A DNA stretch of 64,000 bases from Leptolyngbya ohadii IS1. GTDB taxonomy: Bacteria; Cyanobacteriota; Cyanobacteriia; Elainellales; Elainellaceae. Made by a program: the position numbers and the translations under genes. Below, piece after piece: positions 38,252-63,999 of the stretch. Below the pieces are notes generated by a model. The model searched no databases, was not told where the DNA came from, and worked only from the letters and a program-made list of their open reading frames with translations. The stretch spans positions 124,001-188,000 of the forward strand of contig NZ_NKFP01000007.1 of assembly GCF_002215035.1 (NCBI RefSeq), written 5' to 3'. The first letter of the stretch is position 1; the number at the start of each line of letters is the position of its first letter.

Positions 38252-41200
38252 CTAGCTCTGGGTTAGGGAAGCGATCGCCTCAAACTGAAGCGTATCGACC
38301 AGCGATATCATTGCTTCAATCAGCCATTGCTCGTTATTGGGAATCTGGGCGACCAATTGGTACAATCGCTCATCTTGTAAATCAAGAGCTGCCTCATGAA
38401 CCTTGATGAGCCACTCATCTGGCATGATCTCAAGGTCTTGAGCAGTCAGGTTCTTCTGCACTGCTGGAGCCACTTCCGGGGATTGATTGCAGTAGCGATA
38501 GCCAACATTTAGATAGCGGGCGATCGTCTCAAATAGCACCGTTTCATTAAAAGGCTTAGCAATATGCTCATTGCAACCTGCTTCAAGACTCGCTTGGCGA
38601 TCCGCTTCAAACGCATAAGCCGTGAGTGCAATAATCGGGGTTGGTGGTCGCTGCTTTGCAACTTCGTGTAAGCGAATTTGTTGGGTTGCCTCAAGACCAT
38701 TCATTTCAGGCATTTCCAGATCCATCAGAATTAAGTCAGGCTGCCACGTTTGCCATTGGGCGATCGCCTCAATTCCGTTTTCGACGGTTTTGACCTCAAA
38801 GCCGATCGACTCTAACAACGTCAGCAGTAACTGCCGATTTTCTGGGGCATCCTCAGCCACCAGAATACGGTAAGTGGGCTGATTCGGTTCCAAACCAATG
38901 ATGAGACGACCCGTCGTTGCCTGTAGCAGTGCTACCGCTTCAGGCTGATAGATGAGAACTTGACAGTTGAAGGTTGACCCTTGATTAACTGTGCTTTGAA
39001 CAGTAATATCTCCCCCCATCAAGCGGGCAAACTGACGGCTAATGCATAGTCCCAGTCCAGTGCCTTCAGCCTGACGACCGCGTTCGGTTTGCATGAACGC
39101 CTCAAAGATAGTACCCCAATCACGGTGTTCGATGCCACATCCGGTATCCTTGACAATGAAGGAAAGATTGAGTGAATGACAGGGCGGCATGGCGTTGGGA
39201 TAACATGTACAGCCTCGTTCCGTCGGTTGAGTCCTTGCTACGCTCACCCGCACTAGAACACCACCCTGCGTCGTAAACTTAATGGCGTTGCTAATTAAGT
39301 TAATGAGAATCTGCCGTAACTTTGCTTCGTCACTGCACACATAGCAAGGAACATCGGGGTCTTCCTCAAACACGAGAGTTAAGCCCTTTTGAACTGCTTT
39401 AAGCGCAAACATTTCCTGTAAGGAGCGCAGTAATCGATGCAGATTAAAGTGCCGCTCTGTCAGAAGAAGCTGTCCTGCCTCAATCCGAGACATTTCTAGT
39501 ACATCATTGATCAGAGCTAATAAATGTTCGCCACTGCGGTTAATAATGCGAACGGGTTCTTGAAACTCAGTCGGGATATTGGGGCTACGATTCATCACCT
39601 GGGCAAATCCCAAAATTGCGTTGAGCGGTGTTCGCAGCTCATGGCTCATCTTGGCAAGAAACTGGCTCTTGGCACGGTTGGCGATCGCTGCTCGTTCAGC
39701 CGACTGCTCTAACGCGATTTGGGAAAATTCCAGCACCGCCAGCATCAAGGTGCTTCGCATCATCCTGGCTGCCTCAATTTCTGCGGTCTGCCAGGGAAGT
39801 GACGTTTCCTGTACGGTTTCTTTCCACAGTTCAAACGACTTACGCGGGCACAGGTTCAGATTGCCCAGTTCATCAATTGTGACCGCATCTTTGGGATTTC
39901 CTGCCCAGTGAACTGTTTGAATTTGCTCAGGTCTAAACCAGACAATGTGATAAGACCTCTGGTGTAAAACAATAGAAATCGCGAGAATACCACTGGCAGC
40001 GTCTTTGAAAACCCTGGCAGGGGGGTAAGGTCGAGCAAGGCAATCCGTAAAATAAAACTCTGGCTGGTTCAAGCGAGCTAGCCAACTCAGGAGATCCTGG
40101 ACTGCCTCTAGCGGAGGGGTTTGTCCGATGAGTGAGATTCGCTCATCTAAGGCGATCGCAACTCCCTCAGCTTGGACGAGATGCAGTAGACTAGATGAAT
40201 TTCGCGTTAGCACCTGCTGGATAAAGTTTGGCTCTCGTAAGAATGCCTGCTGAAGTTTGTCTTGAATCGCCTTTACCTGAGTTTGATAACGGAGCAATTC
40301 ACGCTCCTGCTGGTGAACGAGTTCAATTGAGGCAAACTGCCCTAAAAATTCACAGGTTTTGCGTGTTTCGTAATCAACCTGTTTAGGGCTGGAATGATGA
40401 CAGGCAATCAGCCCCCAAAGGTGCTGATCATCAATGAGGGAAACAGTTAATGATCCACCGACTCCCATGTTCTGGAGGTATTCAATGTGGTAAGGAGAAA
40501 CGCCACGCAATACACAATTACTTAAGTCTAATGGCTGTCCTTCAGGGAATGCTTCCGCTGGAATTAAACGAGATAGCGTGTAATTGACGTTAGGAATTTG
40601 GCGAACCCAGTTGCGAAGAAATAATTTTCGGGCAGGAACCGGAATATCGATCGTCGGAAAATGTAACCCCAAATAGCTCTCTAAATGGGATTCCTTCTCC
40701 TCCGCAATCACAACCCCGTGATCGTCTGCTTCAAAGCGATAGATCATGACGCGATCGAACCCTGTTAATGCTTTGACTCGCTGAGCAAGCTTTTGGACTA
40801 AATCAGTTGAGCTGGTTGCACTCCGCAGACTGAGGATTGTGGCTTGCAAGCGATGGTAGAACTGGAGGGAATGAAGTTTTTCATTGGATAGCTGCGGTTC
40901 TATTTCCAGAAGTAGAACATTATTGGTTCGCGATAAGGTTCCTCTGAAAATTCGCGATCGTGCCTTCAACTCAAATGGATTCCACAATTCCAGGTCATCT
41001 TGTTGTAGAAATTCGGCAATTTGCTGAACCTGGAGACGGGAAAAGAGTCGATATAAGGATTTACCGACCACGGTTGTTGCAGGAACGCCTAAAAATTGCT
41101 CGACCGTCTCACTCACCTGCAAAATTTTGAGGTCGGGTTCCTGTAGTACAACAAGAACACCGTTGGGTTGGATATAGCCTGAAGCATAAACCGATGCCTC

Positions 41201-41272
41201 ACTGCACTCTTCCAAATGGGTCAGGGCTGAAGCAGTGAATTCAACTTGTTCAGTAGTGATTGAAGAGTTCAT
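38252..41272 (-). CDS. Bacteriophytochrome hybrid histidine kinase (PAS-GAF-PHY-HK-REC)
   Basis: The 1006-aa protein has a full phytochrome sensory core. Cys23 precedes the PAS domain at the position used by biliverdin-binding phytochromes (nine residues before the Gly of GYIQPNG). The GAF domain has FDRVMIYRFEADDHG, TIDIPVPARKLF and VSPYHIEYLQNMGV, and no Cys at the plant/Cph1 position. The PHY domain has the tongue motif PRKSFELWKE and VHWAGNP. HisKA (AKMSHELRTPLNAI), HATPase and a receiver (ILMDLEMPEMNG) follow. It should sense red/far-red light with a covalently bound bilin. It lies 54 bases after the giant CHASE kinase and 11 bases before the REC-GAF kinase, in one operon. The bilin type needs experiment. 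Confidence 0.9.
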   Translation of the reverse strand: MNSSITTEQVEFTASALTHLEECSEASVYASGYIQPNGVLVVLQEPDLKILQVSETVEQFLGVPATTVVGKSLYRLFSRLQVQQIAEFLQQDDLELWNPFELKARSRIFRGTLSRTNNVLLLEIEPQLSNEKLHSLQFYHRLQATILSLRSATSSTDLVQKLAQRVKALTGFDRVMIYRFEADDHGVVIAEEKESHLESYLGLHFPTIDIPVPARKLFLRNWVRQIPNVNYTLSRLIPAEAFPEGQPLDLSNCVLRGVSPYHIEYLQNMGVGGSLTVSLIDDQHLWGLIACHHSSPKQVDYETRKTCEFLGQFASIELVHQQERELLRYQTQVKAIQDKLQQAFLREPNFIQQVLTRNSSSLLHLVQAEGVAIALDERISLIGQTPPLEAVQDLLSWLARLNQPEFYFTDCLARPYPPARVFKDAASGILAISIVLHQRSYHIVWFRPEQIQTVHWAGNPKDAVTIDELGNLNLCPRKSFELWKETVQETSLPWQTAEIEAARMMRSTLMLAVLEFSQIALEQSAERAAIANRAKSQFLAKMSHELRTPLNAILGFAQVMNRSPNIPTEFQEPVRIINRSGEHLLALINDVLEMSRIEAGQLLLTERHFNLHRLLRSLQEMFALKAVQKGLTLVFEEDPDVPCYVCSDEAKLRQILINLISNAIKFTTQGGVLVRVSVARTQPTERGCTCYPNAMPPCHSLNLSFIVKDTGCGIEHRDWGTIFEAFMQTERGRQAEGTGLGLCISRQFARLMGGDITVQSTVNQGSTFNCQVLIYQPEAVALLQATTGRLIIGLEPNQPTYRILVAEDAPENRQLLLTLLESIGFEVKTVENGIEAIAQWQTWQPDLILMDLEMPEMNGLEATQQIRLHEVAKQRPPTPIIALTAYAFEADRQASLEAGCNEHIAKPFNETVLFETIARYLNVGYRYCNQSPEVAPAVQKNLTAQDLEIMPDEWLIKVHEAALDLQDERLYQLVAQIPNNEQWLIEAMISLVDTLQFEAIASLTQS

Positions 41273-41326: not shown

Positions 41327-44300
41327 TTAGGATGAAAAATTACGATGAATCAAACGGATGATTTGCTCAAACTCACATCGGTTAGCAAGATCCAATAACT
41401 GAGCTTTGAGGGCATCCAATGCTGGTGCTAACTGATTGGTAAGGTCTACGATCGCTCGATCATTTCCACAGAGTGCCAGATCTTCTAGCGTTTCCAGCCA
41501 ATTTACAGGTAATTGAGTTAGCAGTTTTGGATCAAAAAAACTCAACTGATTCACATCCGCATCAGGTACTGCAACAGAAGGAGAATTTGGTAGATCTGAG
41601 GCTTCAGCATAGAGATACTCTAAGCCCAAATATTCTTTCAATTTAAGAAATAGAGTTTCTTCTCGGAACGGCTTACTGATGTAATCATTACAACCTGCGG
41701 CGAGGGCAAGGGCGCGATCGCTCTGAGAAGCCTGAGCCGTTAGAGCAATAATAATGCTGGCTTTCTCATGCTCCATTGCCCGGATCTGTTTCGTTGCCTC
41801 ATATCCGTCCAGTCCCGGCATCCGAATATCCATCCACGTCAGATCGGGCTTCCACTCCTGCCAGAGCGCGATCGCTTCCTGCCCGTTGGTTGCTTCTTGC
41901 ACCTCCAACCCCAGACGAGTGAGCAGTCGAACCATGAGCGATCGATTTTCACGTTGATCATCAACAACCAAAATTCGGCGATGGGGTTGCTCTGGAACCA
42001 ATCCAATAATCGTGCGCTCCTGTTGTTCGACCTGACCATCAACCCCACTGGCTGGACAGACGGGAACCGTCACTGTAAAAGTACTTCCCACTTCTGGGAT
42101 ACTTTCAACAGAAATGGTGCCATTCATTAATGCGAGCAGCCTACGGCTAATGGTCAGTCCCAAGCCAGTTCCACCGATTGATTTGCGACCCGCCTCTGCT
42201 TGTGCAAAGGCATCAAAGATGGACTCTTGCTCTGTTTCGGCAATACCAATTCCCGTATCTGCGACTTCAAACTGAAGGGTGCAAGCAATACTGGCAATAG
42301 GGGGATTGAGAGAGTCATATTGTGAGACATTGGGTACTAAGCAGGCTTTTTGGAATGATTCCCAACTGGTCACTCGTAAGGTTACACTTCCCTGCTTGGT
42401 AAACTTAATGGCATTGCTAAGGAGGTTAAGGAGAATCTGGCGTAGCTTCTGCTCATCCCCAATAACGAACTGAGGCACTTCTGGAGCAATGTCAAAGGAC
42501 AGTTGAAGTTGCTTTGCCTTCGCCCGTTCAGCCATCATGGTACGAAGCGTATGGAGCAGAGAAATTAAATCAAATCCTGATTCTTCTAGGATGCAGTGCC
42601 CGGTTTCAATTTTGGATAAATCTAACACATCATTAATTAAGCTTAAAAGATGATCGCCACTCCGCTGAATCGTTTGTAGATCATCTCGTTGAGCAGGGGT
42701 AAGAGATGAGTCATGAGACATGACCTGAGCAAACCCAAGAATGACATTTAATGGAGTACGGAGTTCATGGCTCATATTTGCCAAAAACATACTCTTAGCC
42801 AAATTTGCTGCTTCAGCCGCCTCCATTGCCTGTCGTAATTGTTGAGACTGCTGTTGGACTTGAGCAAATAGTTCAGCCTGTTGAATTGCAATGCCTAACT
42901 GAGTTCCAATTTGGCTGGCAACCTGAACTTCACCCTCACGCCATTCTCGTGGCTCAGAGTTTTGGTAACTGGCAAGCAGTCCCCAGAGTTTGTTGTTGCT
43001 AAAGATAGGAACCGTCAAATAGGCTCGCGTCTGAAATTTCTCTAGAAATTCAACATAGCAGTTTTCAAAGCCTGACTGGTAAATATCTTTGACAACACGA
43101 TATGAAGTTTCCTGATAGTAGATATTACCTTGAGTTTTCTGAATATAAGTATCTTGCGTTTCTGCCTCTTGGCTATCCCATCGTTTAATGATGCAACGAT
43201 CGGACTCCAGTGTTTGCGCCGCAAACGAAGCATCCTCATTCATCAAAGTTTCAATAACAGAAATCCAACCCTTACCAATTGATTCAGCAACCACCGCGCC
43301 ACTCCAGTCTGGATTAAAGCGATAGACTAAAACGCGATCACAGTTCAACACTCGCCGCAATTCCTGAGTTGTAGTCGCAAAAATTGCTTCCAAACTCAAG
43401 CTTTGGCGCATTTGTTGAATGATCTGGGCAATTGCTTGTTCTCGTGTAGCACTTTCTTGGAGTGCGATTTCAGCTTGCTTGCGATCGGTAATTTCTCGTA
43501 CCATAACGAGAACTTCGTCATGTTGGAGAGGCACAATTCGCACTTCCTCATAGTGTTGGGTTCCCTCAACTAGGATTTCTTGTTCGTACACCTGTACAAT
43601 TTCAGTTTGTAAAGCTTGTTGGGTGTAATGCATTCGCAATTGTGCAAGAGCACCTGGCAGTACATTATAAATATTGATCTCTTCAATAAATTGCGTTGGG
43701 TTGATGAGGTTAAAGGGGCTATTAGAAATAAATTCAACATGGCTTCCATCCGAATACATTCTCATCAACAAATCCGGAATTGCCTGGATAATGGCTTGTT
43801 TAGTGGCTTCGCTCTTACGCAACGCTGCTTCAGCTTGGTGTTGTTGGGTGATATCAATCGCCACGCCTCCAACCAACAGTTGCCCAAACAAGTTGGGCAT
43901 TGGAAATTTGTAGACCAGAAAAGTTCCCATTGTTCCATCTCGACGGGGAGCAACCTCAATCGCTTCTAGAACTTGCTGAGTGTGGGCAACCGTTTGAATG
44001 TTTTCTAGTAAAGGTTGAGCAACATCAGCCGGAAACAAATCAAAAATAGATTGACCAATTACATCTCCGTCAGGTACTCGAAATGTGTCAAGATAAGCCT
44101 GACTGAGGTAGGCAATCTTACCTTCAGAATCGCTAATCCAAGCAGGAGCCGGGCTATAGCGCATAAAAGCCTGGAAACGAGCTTCACTCTCTCGTAATGA
44201 TTGCTCTGATTGTTGACGCTCGGCTTCGAGCCGTATCCGTTCACTAATGTCTCGATTACTCGCTCGTTTACCTAAATAAGTTCCTGTATTACTAAATACA

Positions 44301-51118: not shown

Positions 51119-54100
51119 ATGAATTCAAGAGCTTATCGCTGGTTGCTCCATTACGGAATGGCGATCGGGTCAACAGCCGTTGCCCTCTTATTAACCCTAT
51201 TGTTAGAACCTTTTCTCAATCAAACCATTAGTCCCTTTTTCTTTGTTGCAATTACTTTGACAACCTGGTACGGCGGAATTCGACCCGGAATTGCTGCAAT
51301 TGTCCTCTCAACTTTAGCAATCAGCACATTTTTTGCATCATCTTTAGGAAGTATTTCTGCCCACTCAATTAGTGATCTCGTTCGGCTTGTCACCTTTAGT
51401 CTTGTTGCATTAACAATTCATGGGTTAAAACATGATCTGCAAAAAAGCCAGCATCAAATCAATCAACTCAATCGACAACTTTTAGAAGAAAGTGCTGATC
51501 GTCTACAAACTGCCCTGACTGCTGCCCAAATGGGAATGTGGGACTGGGACATTGTAACCGGAAGAATTACCTGGTCGCCAGAGCATGAATCCTTGCTGGG
51601 TCTTCCTCGTGGCTCGTTTGACGGCAGATATGAAACCTTTGATAATTGCCTGCATCCGGATGATCGAGCAGGGCTGAACCAGGCGGTTGCCCATGCTCTG
51701 CAACATCGGGTTCCTTATTATCATGAGTTTCGAGTCATTTGGGCGGATGGCAGCATTCACTGGCTTGAAGGACGGGGGAATGCCTTTTACAACCCAGATG
51801 GGCAACCTGTACGGATGAGCGGAACGGTCATGGCGATCGATGACCGTAAGCAAGCTCAACTCCTGCTACAGAAGCAATTTGAGCAACAACGTTTAGTTGC
51901 AGAGATAGCAAACCGTATTCGTCAATCCCTTAACCTGCAAGAAATCCTACAAATAACCGTCAATGAAGTAAGACAGTTTCTTCAAGTTGATCGCGTCATC
52001 ATTTTTCAATTTACGCCAGACTGGGGTGGAACCATTGCTGTGGAGTCTGTAGTCGATGAAGCTTTTGCACTATTTCCATTTGATATTCATGACCCCTGTA
52101 TTGGCGATCGCTATGTTGAACCTTTCCAGCAAGGCTTAGTGACAGCAAAAGCAGATATTTATACAGCAAATATTAGTTCATGCCATGTTGAGTTTCTGGC
52201 GCAATTTCAAGTCAGGGCAAACCTTGTGGTTCCCATTTTGAGAAACGGTGAGCTGTGGGGATTGTTAGCTGCCCATCATTGTGTCGCTCCGCGTCAATGG
52301 CAAGAGTCCGAGATTGATTTACTGCGGCAACTGGCTTCTCAAGTCAGTATTGCCTTGCAACAAGCCGATTTGTTTGAGCAGATACAGGCTGAACTAGTGG
52401 AGCGCAAGCAAGCCGAAGCAGCATTACGAGAAAGAGAACGTCTATTTTCTACTCTGGCAGAGGCGTTGCCCGTCGTCATTTTTCGCTTTGATCAAAATAG
52501 CCACTGTAATTACATCAACGACTATTGGACAAGTCTGACGGGTCGAACAATTGAATCTGTAGCGGGGTTAGGTTGGGTGGAAACTTTGCATCCAGAGGAT
52601 CGCGATCGTCTAGCTCAGCAATGGCTGGCATGGAGCCAAAGTCCGCAGCAAGGGCTATATCAGAATGAAGGCAGATTGGTCCATATCAGTGGTCAGGACA
52701 TTTGGTACGACATTCAGGCACTTCCGGAAGTGGATAGCGAAGGTCAAATCGTTGGTTTCGTTGGAGTGATGACAGATATTACTAGCCGTAAACAAGGTGA
52801 GGCATCCCTACGGCAAAGTGAAGCCCGTCTTCGTCTTGCTCAAAATGCCAGTACATCGGGAGTATGGGACTGGGATGTGAAAAAGAATATCCTTTTCTGG
52901 TCGCCTGAATATTACCAGCTCTATGAACTTGATCCCAGCATTGAACCAAATTACGAAAACTGGCTTGGTTGTATCTATCCTGATGATCGAGAAAAGGCAA
53001 ACCAGCAAATTCTACAAGCCTTGGAAGGAGCTTCTGACTTAAGAGTTGAGTTTCGAGTCATGCGATCGACAGAAATTCGATGGTTTGCGGGAATTGGACA
53101 AGTCTTGCGAGATGAGGCAGGACAGCCCACCCGTATGATTGGCATTACGATCGACATCACTCAGCAAAAACAAACGGAGATTGCATTACAACAATTCAAT
53201 GCTGAGCTAGAACAACGGGTTGTAGAACGCACCGACGAGTTAAACGCCTTAAATAGTCGCCTTTTGATTACATTAAAAGAACAACACCAGGCGAGGCAGG
53301 AATTAGAGGATCTGTATAACAATGCTCCTTGTGGCTATCATTCCTTAGATGCAGAGGGCATAGTTGTCCGCATTAATGACACCGAACTCCGTTGGTTAGG
53401 ATATAGCCGTGATGAAGTCCTTAATCAGATGAAGCTTACAGACTTTATCACGACTGAAAGCCAAAAAACATTCCGCCAAAACTTTCCTCAATTTATTCAG
53501 CGAGGTTGGGTAAATGATTTAGAGTTTCAGCTTCGCCATAAAGATGGTTCTACTCGCTGGGTTAATCTGAATGCAGCAGCAGTCAAAGACGATGCCGGAA
53601 ATTTTGTAATGAGCCGATCGAGTATGTTTGATATCAGCGATCGTAAGCAAGCCGAAGCAGTTTTGCAGCAGCAAGCCAGATTGGAGAAAATGCGCTGGGA
53701 GATTACTCAGGCGATTCGCCAATCGTTAGATCTCAAAGCAATTTTAGATACGGCGACAGGGGAAATGCGTCATATATTACAAGTAGATCGTGTTGCTGTT
53801 TATCGCTTTCAACCCGATTGGAGTGGTGATTTTATTGCTGAATCTGTAAAGGATGATTGGGTAAAGCTTGTCAGTTCTGACATTCAGAAAGTCTGGGAGG
53901 ACACCTATCTCCAGGAAACTCAAGGGGGTCGTTTCAAAAACCACGAGACATTTGTAATTTCAGATATTTATACAGCAGGGCTGCAAACCTGCCATATTGA
54001 ATTACTAGAGCAATTTCAGGCAAAAGCCTATGCGGTCGCCCCTATTTTTTTAGGAGAACACCTATGGGGCTTACTTGCGATCTATCAAAACTCAACTGCT

Positions 54101-54817
54101 CGTAGCTGGCAGGATTGGGAAATGGAATTACTGCAAGAAACTGCAAGTCAGCTATCGATTGCTCTGAAACAATCAAATCTCTATAACCAACTTCAAGTCG
54201 AATTGCAGGAACGTGAACGCTCTGCTTCCAGCATAAAAGAGGCTGAACGACGCTGGCGATCGCTGCTGGAAAACGTACAGCTAATTGTCGTTGGACTGGA
54301 TCAAGGTGGCAACATTAACTATGCTAACCCCTTCTTCTTAAACCTCACAGGGTACACGCCTTTAGAGGTTTCGGGCAAAAATTGGTTTGAAAACTTCTTA
54401 CCATCCTCTAGCCATCAGGCAGTTCAAGATGCTTTTTCTGAAGTTTTCTCCCACAACGATCATCCCTGTTATCAAAGCTCAATTCTGACCAAATCAGGCG
54501 AAGAACGATTTATTGACTGGAACAATACGATGCTGCAAGACATTGATGGCAATGTTATTGGCACGATCAGCATTGGAGAAGATATTACTGAACGGCAAAA
54601 GATTGACCAGATGAAACAGGAATTTATTTCGGTCGTGAGTCATGAACTACGCACGCCTCTCACTTCTATTCGAGGATCTCTGGGGTTGATAGCTGGAGGT
54701 GTGTATGACAAAAAACCAGAAAAGATGAAAGAGATGATTACGATCGCAGCTCGTCAGAGCGATCGCTTAGTGCGGCTCGTTAACGACATTCTTAACTTAC
54801 GACACCTGCTTGACTGA
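51119..54817 (+). pseudogene. DUF4118/PAS/GAF histidine kinase, N-terminal part, interrupted by IS
   Basis: This is the first 1229 codons of a sensor kinase, then four IS-derived codons (LLD and stop). Four N-terminal helices form a DUF4118-like domain (SPFFFVAITLTTWYGG). PAS, GAF, three PAS, GAF and PAS follow, ending with HisKA (His1175 in VVSHELRTPL). The first GAF has DPCI with Cys327 and, 28 residues on, Cys355 in SSCHVEF, as in DXCF cyanobacteriochromes. The ATPase domain is missing: it lies beyond the IS at 56105-56623. An AGGGAG ribosome binding site precedes ATG 51119. Without ATPase the product cannot autophosphorylate, so the kinase is probably inactive. Confidence 0.9.
54796..54805. 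repeat. Target-site duplication, left of IS copy 2
   Basis: CTTACGACAC at 54796-54805 recurs exactly at 56095-56104 on the other side of the element. Confidence 0.95.
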
Positions 54818-56094
54818 CAAAACTAAGAAGCTGGAAAGCGGCTGAGGACGGTGAATTCACGCTCGAAGGAATCGTTGAGTTGTCGCCTGGAAGCAATGGC
54901 AGGTTGAGGGTCAGGTAGGCTTGAGAGGAATGAATAAACCTGAATCTTCCATTGCTGGGTGATAGCAAGGCGAATCCAATTCCAACCGAGCTTGAGATAA
55001 CTCATGCCCCGATTCCAATGGGTATCCACTTGGCGACGCTTGCCCGATGTCACGACATTCACGCCTTGCAGGATGAGAAACAGCATGGTCAGAGCAATCA
55101 CTCCGCACAACTGGGAAAGCGCAAATTTGTCTCTGAGCCTGGAGGCTTCAAGATTGAACCCGTTCGACTTGAGGTCTAAAAAGGATTCCTCAACCTGAAA
55201 CCTCAGTCGGTATTGGGCAAACGTCTGCAAGTTCGTTGGTTCATCGCTCACAATTGTCCAATCCTCCCCGCTCTGCTTGTCATGGGCGAAAGCCAAGTAA
55301 ACACCACGGTAAGGCTTCGTTTTGCCCACCGAGACTGCACTTGTGAAGTAAGCCTGTCCGGGCTGCAACTGCACTCCAGAAACCTTGTGCCACTGACCCT
55401 CTCGCTGAAACTGGAACGAGCGTTTAATCCGAATCCGAAAATGCCAGCCCAGATTCTCTCTGAGGTACTTCATCAGTTTGCCATCGGCAAAGCCCCGGTC
55501 TGCCAACAGGACAATTGCCACCCCATCGGGCAGGATTCTTTGGGCTTGTCTGAGAACCCTCTGAATCGTCCACAACCTGACGGTGCTGCTCGATTGTGCC
55601 ACGACTCGCCAAGCGACCGGAACGGTTCTACCCCGATACACCACTCCGACCCAGACGATGCAAAAACAATTCCATACGACCGTCGTATCCAGGCTCAGGT
55701 ACAGCCGTTGGTCTCCCCACTCGGACAGGGCTTGCCCAATCAGCGTGTGATAAGCACTCACCACATCAATCCGTCGATTCGACAACCAGCGACGAAACCG
55801 TCGTTGATGGGATTGAGCGACTTGAGCACGGCTTTTGACATACACGCTAAACCCGTTGAGATGGACGTTCTGGCTCTGGATCATCCCGATGATCATCCAA
55901 CACAGCGTTTGCAGATGGCGGACATCTTGCCACTCGATTCCACATTGACTCAGATAGCGAGACAGCGCATCATAAAGACGGGAAGTTGGAGTCATGGATT
56001 TAATTGATTTGTGTGGTTACTCATCAGCTTAAATCACGCTCTGCTTCCCTCCTAGCTTTCCTTTCATCCCACTCCCGTTTTGTCAGTCAAGCAG
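54806..56094 (-). mobile_element. IS4-type insertion sequence, copy 2 (1289 bp)
   Basis: It has the same 18-bp terminal repeats as copy 1 and the same length (1289 bp), inverted. It is flanked by the duplication CTTACGACAC. Element plus duplication is 1299 bases, a multiple of three, and the host frame resumes after it (...LRH then LESGQ...). The insertion separates the HisKA and ATPase domains of the kinase. Confidence 0.95.
54823..55995 (-). CDS. IS4-type DDE transposase (copy 2)
   Basis: It encodes the same 390-aa protein as the transposase at 9445-10617, with Asp103, Asp166, Glu269 and the Y-x2-R-x3-E-x6-K signature. The frame is intact. It is read against the direction of the interrupted kinase gene. 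Confidence 0.95.
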   Translation of the reverse strand: MTPTSRLYDALSRYLSQCGIEWQDVRHLQTLCWMIIGMIQSQNVHLNGFSVYVKSRAQVAQSHQRRFRRWLSNRRIDVVSAYHTLIGQALSEWGDQRLYLSLDTTVVWNCFCIVWVGVVYRGRTVPVAWRVVAQSSSTVRLWTIQRVLRQAQRILPDGVAIVLLADRGFADGKLMKYLRENLGWHFRIRIKRSFQFQREGQWHKVSGVQLQPGQAYFTSAVSVGKTKPYRGVYLAFAHDKQSGEDWTIVSDEPTNLQTFAQYRLRFQVEESFLDLKSNGFNLEASRLRDKFALSQLCGVIALTMLFLILQGVNVVTSGKRRQVDTHWNRGMSYLKLGWNWIRLAITQQWKIQVYSFLSSLPDPQPAIASRRQLNDSFEREFTVLSRFPAS

Positions 56095-56104
56095 CTTACG
56101 ACAC

Positions 56105-56623
56105 TTAGAGTCAGGGCAAGTCAAGTTTAATTTCCAACAATGTTCTGCTGTTGACTTAATTCAGCAATCAGTGGATGTCATGCGTCCTCAAGCAGAACAG
56201 AGTCAAGTAACCTTAGCCATAACTCCGACAACGGCTGAAGTTTGGGCTGATGCTGATGCGATCGTACAAATGCTGACTAATCTCCTCAGCAATGCCATAA
56301 AATTTTCTCCCCCCAATTCTACTGTTACCGTCACGGCTAATGCTTATCAATCTGTTCCATCTCCCCATTCTTTAACCTGCTTCTCCGTACAGGATCAGGG
56401 AAGAGGTATCCCATCAGAGCAGCTCGAAACCATCTTCGGGCAGTTTCGACAGGTCGATGCGTCTGACTCTCGTGAAAAAGGTGGGACTGGATTGGGTTTA
56501 GCAATTTGTCGCACCATAGTAAAGCAGCACAGCGGTAGAATCTGGGCTGAGAGCATACTAGAACAGGGCAGCACTTTCTATTTCACACTTCCATCAACCC
56601 AACCTGCATTGGATAATGATTGA
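56105..56623 (+). pseudogene. Severed ATPase domain of the interrupted histidine kinase
   Basis: The frame continues the kinase directly after the duplication (LESGQVKFNF, then DLIQQSVDVMRPQAEQS) and encodes a HATPase domain with the N-box MLTNLLSNAIKFSPP, G1 VQDQGRGIP and G2 GGTGLGLAICRTI. Joined to 51119-54805 it restores 1401 aa. An ATG at 56171 could start an isolated ATPase fragment of 150 aa, though no ribosome binding site is obvious. A response regulator gene follows 33 bases after the stop. Confidence 0.9.
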
Positions 56624-56656
56624 GAGTAGAGGATTGCTTCTGGGAGATGCACAAGA

Positions 56657-57037
56657 ATGCCCACTAAACGAGTTCTGGTCATTGACGACGAGGCAGATAT
56701 TCGAGCAATTATTCGAGGTTGCTTAGAGGATATTGCAGAGTGGAAGGTATTCACCGCAGCCTCTGGAGAAGAGGGCATCCAGTTAGCCATCACAGAACAG
56801 CCTGATGGTATTCTCATGGACGTATCAATGCCAGGAATGAGCGGACTGGAAGCACTTCATAAACTTCAGGAAGAGAGTAAGACGCGGATGATTCCCGTTG
56901 TGTTCCTAACTGCCAAAGCCCTTTTAGAGGAACAAGAAATTTTCACAACGTTAGCGATCGCTGGAGTTGTCGTCAAGCCATTTGACCCTATGACCTTAGT
57001 GGATCAAGTAACTGGGGTCTTTGGCTGGAATTCTTAA
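56657..57037 (+). CDS. Single-domain response regulator (REC)
   Basis: The 126-aa receiver has the acidic pair in VLVIDDEADI, the phosphoacceptor Asp in GILMDVSMPGMSG, Thr in VFLTAKA and Lys in VVKPFDP. There is no output domain, so it probably relays phosphate or docks to a kinase. It lies 33 bases after the interrupted kinase and would have been its partner. The next REC gene is a close copy (about 60% identical by eye over the first 50 residues), so the two arose by tandem duplication. Confidence 0.85.
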   Translation: MPTKRVLVIDDEADIRAIIRGCLEDIAEWKVFTAASGEEGIQLAITEQPDGILMDVSMPGMSGLEALHKLQEESKTRMIPVVFLTAKALLEEQEIFTTLAIAGVVVKPFDPMTLVDQVTGVFGWNS

Positions 57038-57212
57038 ATCTTCTTAAAGTTCAAAATTAGTTCAAAACTTGCTTCTACGGTAAGGACGAAGCAGATCGAA
57101 TTTGACTGTTTATAGCTAACTCTTATTAGTTTTGGTGGATGAACGCTTTAAATATTGTCCTTTAATTTCAGTCAAAGCATCTCAAACCTATGAAGCAGAA
57201 ACTTTTTTAGCA

Positions 57213-57599
57213 ATGACAACAAAGCGAGTTTTGATCATTGACGATGAAGCGGATGTCCGAGCCGTTGTACGAGGGTGTCTAGAAGACATCGCCGGATGGG
57301 AAGTTGTGACAGCAGATTCTGGAAAAGAAGGGTTGGTTAAAGTGATCACGGATTCACCTGATGCCATTCTTCTAGATGTGATGATGCCAGGTATGGATGG
57401 ATTAGCATTTCTGTCAGCCTTACGCGACTATGCAAAAGAATCATCTTTACCTGTTGTCCTCCTGACTGCAAAAATTAGTATAACTGAGTCTGATAAATTT
57501 CCAGGATTGAATGTTAAAGGAGTTATTGCAAAGCCGTTTGATCCGTTTTTGTTGGTCGAGCAGTTTGCTAATCTCCTTAATTGGGAAGTAAAAATATAA
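57213..57599 (+). CDS. Single-domain response regulator (REC), paralogue
   Basis: The 128-aa receiver has VLIIDDEADV, AILLDVMMPGMDG with the phosphoacceptor Asp, LLTAKIS and KPFDP. ATG 57213 gives an N-terminus aligned with the preceding REC protein (MTTKRVLIIDDE against MPTKRVLVIDDE). A longer TTG start at 57132 would add 27 residues with no match and is less likely. Both regulators lie downstream of the IS-split kinase. Confidence 0.85.
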   Translation: MTTKRVLIIDDEADVRAVVRGCLEDIAGWEVVTADSGKEGLVKVITDSPDAILLDVMMPGMDGLAFLSALRDYAKESSLPVVLLTAKISITESDKFPGLNVKGVIAKPFDPFLLVEQFANLLNWEVKI

Positions 57600-58482
57600 C
57601 ATTATGATTGAACTAAGATCTAATGTTCCTGGCGAACCAGTCAGAGAAAAGTATGTACTATCCAACTTTCATCTAATTATGAATGGAAAAGGGTGATTGA
57701 AGGGTTGCTGCAACGAGATTTATCAGATCGTCCCCATGAATATGCAACAAGATTTATCCTTGCCTTTATTGTGCTGGGCGTTGGGGAGTTCTATTTGCTG
57801 ATTGTGCTGATGGACTGCTTCCTGTACGGATAGAGCATTGGGAAAGAGGTCTGAGGGCTGGTCAAAGATGGGCTTGCCGTAGAGTTGATTGTTGGTTCTG
57901 CTCATCTCAGCGCTCGTTTCACGCTGCCGCCATAGGCGGGTCGGCTTGCTGCTGCGCGATCGCTTGTCTGTTGATAAACCAGCGATCGTGAGGATCGGTG
58001 CAGGACTGGTTATGCTGGATGATAGCTTGAATTGCTCTCAGGATATGGTCTTGTGGGGGGAGCTTGCCTGCGGTTTTGCAAGGGTTGCGGGGTCCGTGCT
58101 TTTCTGCCTGAGCTGTGGCAGGGTCAATTCCGGAAGTTCTTGGAGTTGGGATCGCTGCTTGGGGAATGGGAATTGGGGCTGTGGGTTTTTCCGGATAAGT
58201 ATTGGCACGGATCGTCGTTGCCAGAGGAGTCAGACAGGTTGATCGCCCTGGTGCGCTATTTGGCTTCTTGGGTCTGCTTTTAGTGAGCTAACTGGTTGGA
58301 GGCAGTGATGTAGGGCAATCAGAGCAAGGACAATCGGAATTCCCTTGCCCTTTGGGTGCAGTAGTTGAGTGATGGGCTTCCCTTTTTCTATCTAGAGGAG
58401 GAGTTTATTAATCTCCCCGATCGGGAAGGATCAGCGAGGACGATTTACTTCGATTCTTCACCTGGCTCAACTGCGTTTTCCT
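57600..58482. other. 883-bp region with no convincing gene
   Basis: Several short frames exist on both strands (57723-57905 minus, 57889-58242 and 58032-58283 plus) but none has a recognisable family or ribosome binding site. The plus frame ending 58283 (FPDKYWHGSSLPEESDRLIALVRYL) reads like a decayed gene fragment. A perfect 10-bp palindrome CCCGATCGGG (58416-58425) precedes the next REC gene. Confidence 0.4.
57723..57905 (-). CDS. Possible small hypothetical protein
   Basis: A 60-aa frame with a Gln/Asn-rich, helical-looking sequence (LFPNALSVQEAVHQHNQQIE). It is the more protein-like of the frames in this stretch, but an opposite-strand frame is equally open. No family was recognised. Confidence 0.2.
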   Translation of the reverse strand: MSRTNNQLYGKPIFDQPSDLFPNALSVQEAVHQHNQQIELPNAQHNKGKDKSCCIFMGTI

Positions 58483-58878
58483 GTGACTGTCTCCAAACAC
58501 CGAATCCTCGTAGTGGATGATTTGATGGACAACTTGTTCCTGATGCAGACCCTATTGGAGGCAGAAGGGTACGAAGTTGAAATGGCTGATAACGGACATT
58601 CAGCGATAGAAAAAACAGAATCAACTTCCCCTGATTTGATTCTGCTTGATGTGATGATGCCAGACATGAATGGTTACGAAGTGACCCAGCGAATCCGACA
58701 GAACCCGAATATTCCCTATATTCCAATTCTTTTGGTTACAGCTCATGACCAGCCGAAAGCAACAGAGGGATTAAATTCAGGTGCGAATGATTTTATTCGG
58801 AAGCCAATTGATTTTGAAGAGCTTCTAGCGCGAGTTAGAGCCTTTTTACAATTTAGAGACCGAACGCAATCTGCTTAA
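58483..58878 (+). CDS. Single-domain response regulator (REC)
   Basis: The 131-aa receiver has ILVVDDLMDN, LILLDVMMPDMNG with the phosphoacceptor Asp, LLVTAHDQPKA and IRKPIDF. GTG 58483 is the most likely start; no ribosome binding site is evident. There is no output domain. It converges on the giant kinase (stop 58902, 23 bases away) and may relay for it. Confidence 0.8.
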   Translation: MTVSKHRILVVDDLMDNLFLMQTLLEAEGYEVEMADNGHSAIEKTESTSPDLILLDVMMPDMNGYEVTQRIRQNPNIPYIPILLVTAHDQPKATEGLNSGANDFIRKPIDFEELLARVRAFLQFRDRTQSA

Positions 58879-58901
58879 TCGGCTTCTACAAAGCCAATTC
58901 T

Positions 58902-61900
58902 TCATGCAGAAGCTCTAAATCGAAGCATAAAGGTGGTCTGTCCATTGCCACTTTCCAGGTGAATTGTCCCTCCTAACCGTTGCGTCATCTTTTTCACCAG
59001 GGCTAAACCTAGCCCGGTTCCCCCATGCTTCCAGGGGTCGTGATTGGGGATGCGGTAGAACTTGTCAAAGATGAGATCGTATTCTTCTGGGGAAATTTCA
59101 ACGCCAGAATTGCTCACCTGGATTTGCAGCCATTCTGATGTAGCTTGAGCAGACAGGGTAATAGTTTCTCCAGGGGGTGTGTATTTACAAGCATTGTGGA
59201 GCAGTTCCGTCAGAATTCGTTGCAGGTGGGGCAGGTGAGTGATCAGTGGAGGTAAGTCATTCGCCATTTGAATCACAAAATGCTGCTCCTGCTGGTGCAT
59301 CCGTTCAGAAAAAGGTTCTGCCAGATGGTCAAGATAGAGAGGCAAATCAATTTCAGTGAGATCAAGGGGGTCTGTATCCCCATCCAGCCGAGTGAGGTCT
59401 AGAAGGTCATTGATTAAGCCAATTTCGCGCTGCCCTTCCTCGCGCAGTACCTTGAAGTAGCGATAAACGGGGGTTGATTCATCTGCAAGAACGCCCAGAC
59501 GACTGAGGCTGATTTCCAGCATTTGGGTCGCCATCTTGATGTTGGACATGGGGGTTCGTAGTTCATGGGAAACGGTGCTCAGGAAATCATCCTTTAATTG
59601 GTTCAGTCGCTCTAACTCCTGAACCTGAGCTTGAGCGGCTTCATAGAGACGGGATTGACGAAGTGCGATTGCACACTGGTTGGCGACTTGTCGCACGAGT
59701 CGTACTTCTTGGTCATCAAAGCTTTCGTGAGGTGGTTTGAATAGCCACAGGTCACCCAGTACCCCCTGGTCATCAAGTAAGGGAACTGCTAGGGCACACA
59801 TCGGCTGCTGTTCAGAGCGCACGGCATTTGCAGTCATGCAAAAATGGCAGCTCTGCCCCCCCAACAAATTGGCATAGATTTCAGAGTAAGGGGTGGCTGC
59901 GATCTCGAAGGTGCATCCCTGGGCAGGATTTAGAGTTTCAACGTACTCATAGGCAATGGTCGAAGTGGTTTGTTGTGCATTGTAGATGGCTGCATCGCAA
60001 GCAGAGACTTGTAGCCCTTGTGCTAATTCGTTAACGGCAGCCTGTAGGATTTGCCTTTCGTCAAGACTATCGCGGACTTTATCTGTAATGCGCTTTAATC
60101 GGGCTTCAAAGTCCAGAGCTTGCTGAAGTTGGGCAGTGCGATCCTGCACCTGCACTTCTAATTGGGTGTTCCATTGCTGCACTTGCCGATAGAGTTGGGA
60201 TTGTTGAATGGCAATCGCGACTTGAGCTGACAATTGCAGGAGTAGATCCCGTTCTAGGGGTTGCCAGGGGCGAGGAGCATTACATTGATGCACGACCAGT
60301 AAGCCCCAGAGAGTGCTGCCCTGCCAGATGGGGACGACGAGTTTGGCTCTGACCTGAAGCTTTTCTAGAAGTTCAATATGGCAGTGGCTCAATCCCGCTG
60401 TATAAATATCATTCGTCGCTTGAATCGCCCGATTCACGTAAGCTTGCTCACGGTTCTCGACAAAATAAGTGTCTCGAATTTCCCAGTTGAGGATTGGCTG
60501 CCAGCCAGGAGCCACTGATTCTGTCACCACGACCCCGCCCCAATCGGGGTTGAAACGGTAAACAATCACGCGATCGCATTGGAGGAAGCGCCGAACTTCT
60601 GCGACAGTGGTGTTGAGAATAGTCTCCAGGTCAAGGGAGTCGCGAATATGCTGAACAATGGCAGTCATCATCTGCTCCCGTTCGGCTTGGTGACGTAGTG
60701 TGAGTTCTGCTTGCTTTTGAACGGTGATGTCTATGAATGAAGCGACGACTGCGTAGGGTAGAGGCTGCTCCGGGTAAAACAATGGTTGAGTGTTGATTGA
60801 GATCCAGGTGAGATCCCCGTTGGGCTTATGAACGCCCATGATGACGTTAGACTGTGGCTCTCCGGTTCGCAGTGTCACCATTGACGGATGGGTTTCACCG
60901 GGAAAGGGTGAGCCATCCTCGTGAATTGCCTGCCATTGCGGATCAACTGAGGTGTGCCCCATCATCTGATCCTGCGTCAACCCTAAAATTCGTTCGGCAC
61001 TGGTATTGCAAGCCGTGATTTGCCCATCCGCTTGCTGAAGCACCACGCCTTCTGCCAGTACGGTGACGACCGAGCGGTAGCGATCTTCGCTTTCCTGCAA
61101 TGCCTGGAGCAGGGTATTTTTCGCTTCAAACTCCAGCGCCAGTTGAATGGCAGTCGCCAGAAATCCTGCGAGCAGTTGGAGAGTCTCAATGTCTACTTCG
61201 GAGAAAGCATCTGGGACTTGAGCAAAGATATTCAGAACTCCCACACAGCCGCCTGAAGTCAATAGGGGAACGGCGACGATGGATTGCACCCCCATTTGCT
61301 GGCAAGCCGCGAAGTCAACTCTTGGATCAGTGGCAACGTCACTGCATTGCAGAATCTTGCCTGCCGCAACACAGTGACTGGATAAGCTGTTTTCTGCCTG
61401 AAGACGAATGCCTGGATAAGCAGGCGCGACACCACGGGCGAGGCGATAAACTAATTGGTCTCCATCCAGCAGTTCAATCAGTACCCCCGCTGCGTCCGTT
61501 AATGCCTGGACTGATGCAAGACTCGCTGCAATTACAGCATCCAGGCTGGCATTGTTGAGAGTGATGTCCTGTTGAGCCTGGATGATGGCAGCAAGCCGCT
61601 GGGATTTTTGCTGGAGTGCGGCTTCTACCTGTTTCAGCTCAGTGATATCAACGGAGTTCCCAATGATGCCACAAACCTCATTATTGGGGCTGATCCAAGG
61701 GCAAATCCTGGTTTGATACCAGCGCAGGTCTCCCTGAGCCGTCGGAATTTGCTGAACGTGCAGTTGTGCCTGACGGTTCTCCATCACGGCACGGTTACTG
61801 GCTAAAAACTGCTCCAGTTGCGCCTGACTAAGATTTGAGTTGAATTCCAGTTCTCGCTTACCGAGCATCGCTTCCGGGCTGCTGCCGTGAACATCGCTAC

Positions 61901-63999
61901 TTGCCTGATTGACAACGAGGAACCGTCCTGCTTTGTCCTTGACAAAAATGGAGCTGGGAACCGTGTCGATAATTTGCCGCAGAAAAGCTTGTTGGGCTTC
62001 CAGTTCAGCTTCAGCTTGTTTACGATCGCTGATGTCTAACAGTACGCCTAGTAGCCGTAGCGGTTGCCCAGCCTTGTCGTACATCCCCTTGGCGCGTGCC
62101 ATCATCCAGCGAATAGAACCATCGGCGTGAATCACGCGATACTCTGCGGCGTAGTCGGTCTGAGTGTTGAGAGCATCCGAAAGTTTTTGATTAACCCAAT
62201 CAAGGTCATCGGGGTAAACATGGTTTGACCACAGTTTCTCACTGGCTTCACAACGCCCAGGGACTAATCCAAGCAGGGTAAAGTGATTGTCATTCCAGAC
62301 CATTTTTCCACTGGGCAGGTGGTAATCCCAGAAGCCAATGTGGGTTAAATCTAATGCTAATCGCCGTCGTTCCTCGCTCTCGCGCAGGGCTTCCTGAATC
62401 TGGGCTTGCTCCTGATAGGCAACCAGTAAGCGATCGTTGAGGGCAACCAGTTCTGCGGTGCGTTCTGCGACCCGTTGCTCTAGCTCTGCGTTTAACGCTT
62501 GCAGTGCTAGCTCTGCCTGCTTTTGTGGAGTAATGTCGATCGCAATGCCGATCATGCGGACAGGTTCACCAGAATTGCCATAGAAGATTTGTCCGATATC
62601 AGCAAACCAGCAGATTGTGTCCGACCGGATGACGCGAAACTCAATTCTGATGTCAGAGGCTCCGGTTTCTACGGCTCGTTGGGTTTGTTGGTGGACTCTC
62701 TCTCGATCGTCGGGATGGATATGACGCAGCCAGTTGTCATAGCTTGCTGCAACACTGGGGTCAAGTGCATAGAGCTGATAATATTCAGGCGACCAGAAAA
62801 CCGTGTTCGACTGGATATCCCAATCCCAGACCCCAGAATGACTGGCAACTTGAGCTAATCGCAATCGAGCTTCACTTTGTCGAAGTGCAGCTTCATTTTG
62901 TTTGCGTTCGGTGATTTCCTCACAAACCGCACTAATCCCGATGATGTGATTTCCATCCCACAGCGGCAAAAAGTGTTCGAGCCAGGTGCGTCGCACTCCG
63001 GGTTGAGCCGGGGTTTCTCCGGTGATTTCGACATTCAGCCGGGGTTCTCCCGTTTCTAGAATGGGACGTAACAGTTGGTCAGCCGTATCAGCCAGGTCTG
63101 GCACGAGATCTCGAATAGTACGCCCTAAATGATCTTCCACCGAAAAGCCATTCATTTCCGCTAATCGTTCGTTGATGCGAACAAAGCGAAGGTTCGTGTC
63201 CAGCACGGCTAACCCAACAGGAGCATTGCGGTAGATAGTTTCAATTTCAGCTAACTGTCGCTGGATTTGGTTCTGGCTCTGTTGCAATATATCCTTCGCT
63301 TGTTTGTGCTGAGTGACATCGAACGAAAAGATGATGATGCTACCAATGTCATCCGTGGGCTTGTACCAGGGGCGAATTTCCCACGAGATCCATTGGAGTG
63401 TTCCATCTGCCCGCACAAACAAATCTTCATCTCCTCGTTCGATCGCTCCAGCCAAGCACTGCCGATGAATCTGCCGCCAGGTTTCTGGAATTTCGGGAAA
63501 GACTTCGTAGTGGGATCGATTCAGTAAAGATTCAATGGAATCCAGTTGATATTCATTTACCCACTGCTGACTTGCCATGAGATAGCGCATCTCCGAGTCC
63601 AGCATGGCGATACCAGCAGGCGCGTACTGAATAAACAGGCGCAGGAGCAATTCCTTTTCTTGCAGGGCAGCTTCAACTCGCTGGCGCTGAGCTAATTCAG
63701 CCTGTAATTGTTCAACCAAATTCATCTGCTGAAGCGAAATTCCGACCTGTAAAGCGATTTGTCGGAGCAGGTTGATTTCTGAGTCCTGCCATGTGCGAGG
63801 AGCCGCACAATGGTGAGCAATGAGCAGCCCCCAGAGTTCACCCCCCTGCATGATTGGCACGACGAGGTTGGCTCTCACTTGAAACTGAGACAACAGTTCT
63901 AGATGACATGGCTTAATTTCAGCCGTATGAATGTCAGCTTTGGCTGTGACTAGACCTTGTTTGAAGGGTTCAACGTAAGTTTCACTAAAGCAGGGGTCG
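58902..63999 (-). CDS. Giant PAS/GAF histidine kinase, N-terminus beyond window
   Basis: The frame is open to the right edge; 1698 residues are visible. In order: end of a GAF domain with DPCF (Cys codon 63991-63993) and CH (Cys codon 63907-63909), five PAS domains, GAF, PAS, a phytochrome-like GAF (SHCHIELLEKLQVRAKLVVPI), a further GAF, HisKA (FLSTVSHELRTPMSN) and HATPase (NHDPWKHGGTGLGLALVKKM). The first GAF has its two Cys 28 residues apart, as in DXCF cyanobacteriochromes. The last GAF-HisKA-ATPase block closely matches the kinase at 36447. One PAS and its linker match the IS-split kinase. No receiver domain is fused; the REC protein at 58483 is adjacent. Confidence 0.9.
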   Translation of the reverse strand, partial: DPCFSETYVEPFKQGLVTAKADIHTAEIKPCHLELLSQFQVRANLVVPIMQGGELWGLLIAHHCAAPRTWQDSEINLLRQIALQVGISLQQMNLVEQLQAELAQRQRVEAALQEKELLLRLFIQYAPAGIAMLDSEMRYLMASQQWVNEYQLDSIESLLNRSHYEVFPEIPETWRQIHRQCLAGAIERGDEDLFVRADGTLQWISWEIRPWYKPTDDIGSIIIFSFDVTQHKQAKDILQQSQNQIQRQLAEIETIYRNAPVGLAVLDTNLRFVRINERLAEMNGFSVEDHLGRTIRDLVPDLADTADQLLRPILETGEPRLNVEITGETPAQPGVRRTWLEHFLPLWDGNHIIGISAVCEEITERKQNEAALRQSEARLRLAQVASHSGVWDWDIQSNTVFWSPEYYQLYALDPSVAASYDNWLRHIHPDDRERVHQQTQRAVETGASDIRIEFRVIRSDTICWFADIGQIFYGNSGEPVRMIGIAIDITPQKQAELALQALNAELEQRVAERTAELVALNDRLLVAYQEQAQIQEALRESEERRRLALDLTHIGFWDYHLPSGKMVWNDNHFTLLGLVPGRCEASEKLWSNHVYPDDLDWVNQKLSDALNTQTDYAAEYRVIHADGSIRWMMARAKGMYDKAGQPLRLLGVLLDISDRKQAEAELEAQQAFLRQIIDTVPSSIFVKDKAGRFLVVNQASSDVHGSSPEAMLGKRELEFNSNLSQAQLEQFLASNRAVMENRQAQLHVQQIPTAQGDLRWYQTRICPWISPNNEVCGIIGNSVDITELKQVEAALQQKSQRLAAIIQAQQDITLNNASLDAVIAASLASVQALTDAAGVLIELLDGDQLVYRLARGVAPAYPGIRLQAENSLSSHCVAAGKILQCSDVATDPRVDFAACQQMGVQSIVAVPLLTSGGCVGVLNIFAQVPDAFSEVDIETLQLLAGFLATAIQLALEFEAKNTLLQALQESEDRYRSVVTVLAEGVVLQQADGQITACNTSAERILGLTQDQMMGHTSVDPQWQAIHEDGSPFPGETHPSMVTLRTGEPQSNVIMGVHKPNGDLTWISINTQPLFYPEQPLPYAVVASFIDITVQKQAELTLRHQAEREQMMTAIVQHIRDSLDLETILNTTVAEVRRFLQCDRVIVYRFNPDWGGVVVTESVAPGWQPILNWEIRDTYFVENREQAYVNRAIQATNDIYTAGLSHCHIELLEKLQVRAKLVVPIWQGSTLWGLLVVHQCNAPRPWQPLERDLLLQLSAQVAIAIQQSQLYRQVQQWNTQLEVQVQDRTAQLQQALDFEARLKRITDKVRDSLDERQILQAAVNELAQGLQVSACDAAIYNAQQTTSTIAYEYVETLNPAQGCTFEIAATPYSEIYANLLGGQSCHFCMTANAVRSEQQPMCALAVPLLDDQGVLGDLWLFKPPHESFDDQEVRLVRQVANQCAIALRQSRLYEAAQAQVQELERLNQLKDDFLSTVSHELRTPMSNIKMATQMLEISLSRLGVLADESTPVYRYFKVLREEGQREIGLINDLLDLTRLDGDTDPLDLTEIDLPLYLDHLAEPFSERMHQQEQHFVIQMANDLPPLITHLPHLQRILTELLHNACKYTPPGETITLSAQATSEWLQIQVSNSGVEISPEEYDLIFDKFYRIPNHDPWKHGGTGLGLALVKKMTQRLGGTIHLESGNGQTTFMLRFRASA

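What the first reader, a model, noticed from the sequence alone, without database searches (positions are those of the whole stretch)
51119..63999. Two GAF domains with DXCF cyanobacteriochrome double-cysteine signature
The first GAF of the IS-split kinase has DPCI then CH, and the GAF at the right edge has DPCF then CH. In both the two cysteines are 28 residues apart, the spacing I recall between the paired Cys of the DXCF photoreceptor TePixJ. These are candidate blue/green-type photoreceptors. The other GAFs nearby have only CH, or CY.
Basis: partly seen in the sequence, partly recalled or inferred. Interest (0 to 1): 0.7.

Follow-up and report, generated by a model that had tools for sequence, protein, structure and literature searches.

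The report
Two blue-type cyanobacterial light-sensor domains
Two neighbouring cyanobacterial sensor kinases each carry a domain with the two cysteines that let known photoreceptors sense blue light; such domains are common (17 in this genome alone), so this is a sound but ordinary find, although a mobile element has cut one of the two kinases in half.

Summary
DPCI(C327)...CH(C355) in the kinase at 51119 and DPCF...CH in the right-edge kinase have cysteines 28 residues apart, as TePixJ C494/C522. The motif occurs in 17 of this genome's 120 GAF hits; shuffled sequences give 0.01. Both GAFs are 66% identical paralogues in one clade (bootstrap 99) whose 14 members all keep both cysteines. Sequence and a predicted fold (DPCI GAF) match bilin-binding cyanobacteriochromes. 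The genome has heme oxygenases and a bilin reductase.

Best reading: dual-Cys DXCF-type cyanobacteriochromes with a blue-absorbing dark state. Photoproduct colour (green with phycoviolobilin, orange with phycocyanobilin) cannot be read from sequence.

Corrections: (1) the "CY" GAF (42884-43393) has its own second cysteine, an insert-Cys motif (DRCIIK), kept in 23 of 23 readable relatives; (2) the kinase's other GAF is an expanded red/green (WXDXXL) type; (3) DPCI is not the known DXCIP lineage, which lacks the canonical cysteine; the DPC[I/V] form recurs in relatives; (4) a 1289-bp IS with a 10-bp target duplication separates HisKA from the ATPase domain, so that kinase is probably dead here, while a relative has it intact.

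New member of a known kind.

The parts
51932..52357 (+). GAF 1 of the IS-split kinase: dual-Cys (DPCI ... CH) cyanobacteriochrome GAF
   Evidence: Pfam GAF residues 272-413; best PDB sequence matches are all bilin GAFs; AF2 model pLDDT 85.5, Foldseek top hits all bilin GAFs incl. TePixJ 4fof/4glq
52097..52099 (+). second Cys C327 (DPCI), predicted C10 ligand
   Evidence: codon read; aligns with TePixJ C494
52181..52183 (+). canonical Cys C355 (CH), predicted ring-A ligand
   Evidence: codon read; aligns with TePixJ C522
51119..54817 (+). N-terminal 1232 aa of the kinase: DUF4118, PAS, DPCI GAF, PAS repeats, XRG GAF, PAS, HisKA; ends in a stop inside the IS
53729..54166 (+). GAF 2 of the same kinase: expanded red/green type (VWEDTYLQETQGG ... 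CH), single canonical Cys
   Evidence: E 8.5e-61 to NpR6012g4 6bhn; XRG clade, SH-aLRT 99
54806..56094 (.). IS element (1289 bp, 17-bp terminal inverted repeats, 10-bp target duplication CTTACGACAC, DDE transposase on - strand) inserted between HisKA and HATPase_c
   Evidence: transposase Pfam DDE_Tnp_1
56171..56623 (+). severed HATPase_c (catalytic) part of the kinase
   Evidence: Pfam HATPase_c 5.3e-31; flanks read as one 1401-codon frame at the empty site; intact 1537-aa homologue in L031
63732..64000 (-). GAF 1 of the right-edge kinase: dual-Cys (DPCF ... CH) cyanobacteriochrome GAF; continues 157 bases past the window
63990..63992 (-). second Cys (DPCF)
   Evidence: codon read
63906..63908 (-). 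canonical Cys (CH)
   Evidence: codon read
58902..63998 (-). in-window part of the right-edge kinase: GAFs, PAS repeats, HisKA, HATPase_c (intact); about 2020 aa in the assembly
60207..60632 (-). second CH GAF of the right-edge kinase (DTYF ... CH), single canonical Cys, nearest solved relative PPHK 6oap
   Evidence: (E 9.6e-57)
42884..43393 (-). CY GAF of the 2285-aa kinase: insert-Cys dual-Cys type, insert Cys codon 43193-43195 (DRCIIK), canonical Cys codon 43058-43060 (CY)
   Evidence: Cys-to-Asp 14, to Tyr 16, as UG2 C569/D583/Y585 of PMC5240096
49206..51065 (+). response regulator REC-wHTH-Hpt-REC-REC upstream of the split kinase, conserved there in relatives
   Evidence: syntenic in L031 and L032
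56657..57599 (+). two single-domain response regulators downstream (56657-57037, 57132-57599), syntenic in L032

Best explanation
Both GAFs are cyanobacteriochrome photosensory domains of the dual-cysteine DXCF kind. The canonical Cys (CH) holds a phycocyanobilin-derived bilin by ring A; the second Cys (DPC[I/F]) attaches to C10 in the dark 15Z state and gives blue absorption; blue light isomerizes C15=C16, the second bond breaks and a longer-wavelength photoproduct forms. Photoproduct: green if PCB is isomerized to phycoviolobilin (a little favoured because the residue after the canonical Cys is His as in TePixJ), orange if not. The signal would pass through PAS domains and coiled linkers to HisKA and then to adjacent response regulators. 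In this strain the DPCI kinase has been severed from its ATPase domain by an IS and is probably not an active kinase; the DPCF kinase is intact. Shown: cysteines, spacing, homology, predicted fold of the DPCI GAF, conservation, domain order, IS. Inferred: bilin binding, adduct chemistry, colour, signalling partners.
For: Cys codons and 28-residue spacing (TePixJ C494/C522). All best PDB matches by sequence and fold are bilin-binding GAFs. The pocket residues D492, C494, C522, H523, L527, N535 of TePixJ are kept. Both Cys are invariant in the 14-row clade, including rows from genomes of other genera. The two Cys occur together in 17 GAFs against 0.01 expected. The genome encodes one ferredoxin-dependent bilin reductase and three heme oxygenases. 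Intact DPCI kinase with syntenic regulators in relatives.
Against: No spectrum or bilin-binding test was possible. TePixJ H498, W499 and Q526 are not kept (R/T, Y, F/L), though these positions vary among the 46 dual-Cys rows. Phe of the motif is Ile in one domain. Two related GAFs of the same family (G026 NSCF, G028 VPCI) have lost the motif Asp, so some of this wider group may have altered function.
Confidence: 0.88

Rival explanations
1. Dual-Cys GAFs that keep phycocyanobilin: blue dark state, orange (not green) photoproduct, or a mixed population. (A sub-case of the best explanation that differs only in colour.)
For: DXCF members with green, teal and orange photoproducts are known (PMC5578081); beta2 Phe of the teal type is Ile/Val here, so teal is unlikely but orange is open.
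Against: His follows the canonical Cys as in TePixJ; 35 of 46 dual-Cys rows share it. No sequence rule tested here separates PVB from PCB.
Confidence: 0.35
2. The second Cys is present but does not form the reversible C10 adduct, at least in the DPCI domain where Ile replaces Phe; the domain would then behave as a single-Cys sensor with a longer-wavelength dark state.
For: Ile/Val replaces Phe at the residue next to the Cys, a position listed as tuning the D-ring region (PMC5240096).
Against: The Cys itself is invariant across all 10 DPC[I/V] sequences of the clade, which predicts a kept function.
Confidence: 0.08
3. Vestigial or non-photosensory GAFs, with no bilin.
For: Many of the 120 GAF hits in this genome lack the canonical Cys; the DPCI kinase is already broken by an IS.
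Against: Pocket residues are kept, related GAFs keep both Cys, and the IS is recent (two identical copies with intact target duplications).
Confidence: 0.04

Closest known systems
TePixJ GAF (DXCF cyanobacteriochrome, PDB 3vv4, 4fof, 4glq, 6p58)
   Same: DPCF/CH with 28-residue spacing; predicted fold of the DPCI GAF matches (4glq TM 0.84 over the target); D492, C494, C522, H523, L527, N535 kept
   Different: About 40% identity; H498, W499, Q526 not kept; R507 is Leu; separate clade; effector is a histidine kinase, not a chemotaxis receptor; DPCI instead of DPCF in one
PPHK (dual sensor histidine kinase, PDB 6oap)
   Same: Closest solved GAF by sequence (E 2e-45 and 8.5e-49) and by fold
   Different: DQYF in place of DPC[IF]: no second Cys
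DXCIP cyanobacteriochromes
   Same: DXCI at the second-Cys motif
   Different: DXCIP members lack the canonical Cys (PMC5578081, PMC6628166); the window GAF has it and lacks the Pro. A DXCIP-like GAF does exist elsewhere in this genome (C6:1453484)
Insert-Cys cyanobacteriochromes UG1/UG2, NpF2164g3, NpR1597g2
   Same: The CY GAF at 42884-43393 has the CXXK insert motif and, like UG2, Asp at +14 and Tyr at +16 from the insert Cys
   Different: beta2 residue is Val where UG1 has Phe and UG2 Tyr; colour not tested
Expanded red/green lineage (NpR6012g4, AnPixJg2)
   Same: GAF 2 of the split kinase has a WXDXXL motif (WEDTYL), beta2 Phe, helix Phe, single CH
   Different: Part of a tandem with a dual-Cys GAF in one kinase

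Membership tests
DXCF cyanobacteriochrome | Cyanobacteriochrome-type GAF with canonical Cys on helix alpha4, followed by His/Tyr | tested here: met
   both domains
DXCF cyanobacteriochrome (right-edge GAF) | Second Cys in an Asp-Xaa-Cys-Phe motif | tested here: met
   DPCF
DXCF cyanobacteriochrome (GAF of the IS-split kinase) | Second Cys in an Asp-Xaa-Cys-Phe motif | tested here: inconclusive
   DPCI: Asp and Cys kept, Phe not; the Phe is also Ile, Leu or Val in 14 of 46 dual-Cys rows, so it is a member of the clade but not of the motif read strictly
DXCF cyanobacteriochrome | Covalent bilin and reversible second-Cys adduct at C10, blue dark state | not testable with these tools
   needs purified protein
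DXCF cyanobacteriochrome | PCB-to-phycoviolobilin isomerization (typical members) | not testable with these tools
   needs acid-denaturation spectra
DXCIP lineage | Canonical Cys absent | tested here: not met
   C355 present in the DPCI GAF
Insert-Cys (for the CY GAF at 42884-43393) | Second Cys in an insertion loop before the Asp motif, CXXR/K | tested here: met
   DRCIIK; a Cys lies in the insert of 23 of 23 readable relatives; spacing as UG2
Insert-Cys (for the CY GAF at 42884-43393) | Near-UV/violet dark state via the insert-Cys adduct | not testable with these tools
   needs spectra
Expanded red/green (for GAF 2 at 53729-54166) | WXDXXL motif and no second Cys | tested here: met
   VWEDTYL, single Cys, XRG clade

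The most novel reading that the evidence does not exclude
The sister lineages DPC[I/V]-CH and VESC-DPCF-CH are spectrally distinct dual-Cys subtypes: Ile/Val next to the second Cys, or a third conserved Cys in the beta2 region, changes the adduct chemistry or photoproduct colour, and tandem blue (DPCI) and red/green (XRG) GAFs in one kinase make a two-colour ratio sensor that an IS has recently disabled in this strain.
Probability: 0.12. Interest if true: 0.4.

Novelty: new member of a known kind. Interest (0 to 1): 0.22.

Why it matters
It adds well-supported candidate blue-light sensors to a genome very rich in bilin GAFs, and it places blue-type, red/green-type, insert-Cys and bacteriophytochrome-type sensors in one roughly 28-kb signalling cluster. 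The natural F-to-I/V change beside the second Cys, kept in a lineage, is a ready-made test of what that Phe does. The IS-split kinase, with an intact homologue in a relative, is a natural loss of function to compare. None of this overturns current understanding.

Tried and rejected
Rejected: DPCI as a DXCIP member (canonical Cys present). Rejected: chance Cys spacing (17 motif GAFs against 0.01 in shuffles; only 4 other GAFs have any 28-spaced Cys pair, none at the motif). Rejected: teal photoproduct, as the beta2 Phe is absent in both, on the trapped-twist rule taken from papers. A first regular-expression filter for own GAFs found nothing and was replaced by a hand-picked list. The number of F-to-I/V changes could not be fixed, because the base of the 14-row clade is unresolved when motif columns are left out.

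Full report
What was checked. The window is C7:124001-188000 of a 7.9-Mb cyanobacterial assembly with 120 Pfam GAF hits. The nearest named relatives of the DPCI GAF are filamentous cyanobacterium CCP2 (91%) and Elainella saxicola E1 (90%). The two GAFs of the finding are real. In the kinase at 51119-54817 the first GAF has D325-P-C327-I and C355-H; in the kinase that runs off the right edge the first GAF has D-P-C-F and C-H. The right-edge GAF was completed from the assembly and is whole. Both Cys pairs are 28 residues apart; TePixJ has the same spacing in the PDB sequence and its paired cysteines are C494 and C522 (PMC6955287).

Is it more than chance. The pattern D-x-C-(27)-C-[H/Y] occurs in 17 of the 120 GAF hits; shuffling each sequence gives 0.01 per genome set. 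Four other GAFs have a 28-spaced Cys pair elsewhere, none at this motif. The pattern is therefore real, and also common: these two are two of seventeen in this genome.

What they are. Every strong sequence match among solved structures is a bilin-binding GAF. An AlphaFold2 model of the DPCI GAF (pLDDT 85.5, pTM 0.82) matches bilin-binding GAFs as its best hits, including TePixJ 4fof and 4glq. No model was made of the DPCF GAF. Of the TePixJ residues that the literature names around the bilin (L527 from PMC7504144), D492, C494, C522, H523, L527 and N535 are kept in both; H498 is R/T, W499 is Y, Q526 is F/L, and these three vary among the 46 dual-Cys rows compared.

Lineage. In a tree of 63 GAFs the two fall in one 14-row clade (SH-aLRT 98; bootstrap 99 with motif columns left out). 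Inside it, four rows with DPCF, among them the right-edge GAF, also carry a third Cys in the beta2 region (VESC, 4 of 4); the other ten have DPCI or DPCV. All 14 keep both Cys. The DPC[I/V] form is therefore an old, kept variant and not a mutation of this strain. It is not the DXCIP lineage, which by definition lacks the canonical Cys (PMC5578081, PMC6628166).

Colour. A second Cys of this type predicts a blue dark state (established for the DXCF family; PMC6628166, PMC11284453). Photoproducts of the family range from teal to orange. The beta2 Phe that goes with teal is Ile/Val here; the helix Phe is present; Leu is kept at the Tyr/Leu tuning site. Green or orange cannot be decided from sequence. 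Chromophore supply is present: one bilin reductase and three heme oxygenases.

The CY GAF (42884-43393) carries DRCIIK in an insertion before its Asp motif, with Cys-to-Asp 14 and Cys-to-Tyr 16, the spacing given for the insert-Cys protein UG2 (C569, D583, Y585; PMC5240096). Of 24 relatives fetched, the insert region could be read in 23; all 23 have a Cys there, and in those whose printed stretch reached that far the canonical Cys is followed by Tyr. The +3 Lys/Arg of the motif is not kept in all of them. It is a third dual-Cys domain in the cluster. GAF 2 of the split kinase is an expanded red/green type.

Kinase context. The split kinase is DUF4118-PAS-GAF(DPCI)-PAS repeats-GAF(XRG)-PAS-HisKA, then a 1289-bp IS (54806-56094, 17-bp inverted ends, 10-bp target duplication), then HATPase_c. 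Read across the empty site the flanks form one 1401-codon frame, and a relative has an intact 1537-aa homologue (L031). A second identical IS lies at 9346-10634 with its own 10-bp duplication; these are the only full copies in the assembly. The truncated protein ends shortly after HisKA and is predicted not to autophosphorylate (inference). The upstream REC-wHTH-Hpt-REC-REC regulator is kept in L031 and L032, and the two downstream single receivers in L032. The right-edge kinase keeps HisKA and HATPase_c.

Verdict. Observation confirmed; interpretation right on type, open on colour, wrong on the CY neighbour. New members of a known kind.

Noticed in passing
   Followed up: yes
G000:C6:1453484-1453897: GAF with DPCIP and Glu at the canonical Cys position, as expected of the DXCIP lineage.
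   Followed up: partly
G000:C1:836081-836581: Second insert-Cys GAF of this genome (DRCVTKR ... CY).
   Followed up: partly
L041 (Tychonema) and L042 (Nostoc), match regions: DXCF motif appears duplicated (DPCLAENY ... DPTFAEDY or DPALVENY) with a 19-residue insertion; the Cys lies in the first copy, so its spacing to the canonical Cys is 47 instead of 28.
   Followed up: no
L123 (G026) and L125 (G028): Related GAFs keep both Cys but have lost the motif Asp (NSCF, VPCI).
   Followed up: no
right-edge GAF and L127, L122, L129: Third conserved Cys in beta2 (VESC) found only in the DPCF subclade, 4 of 4.
   Followed up: partly
38252-41272 (-): Phytochrome (PAS_2-GAF-PHY-HisKA-HATPase-REC) with Tyr at the GAF Cys position (SPYHIEYL) and an N-terminal Cys at residue 23, so probably of the biliverdin-binding type.
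   Followed up: partly
9346-10634 and 54806-56094: Two identical 1289-bp IS copies in opposite orientation, each with its own 10-bp target duplication; the only full copies in the assembly.
   Followed up: yes
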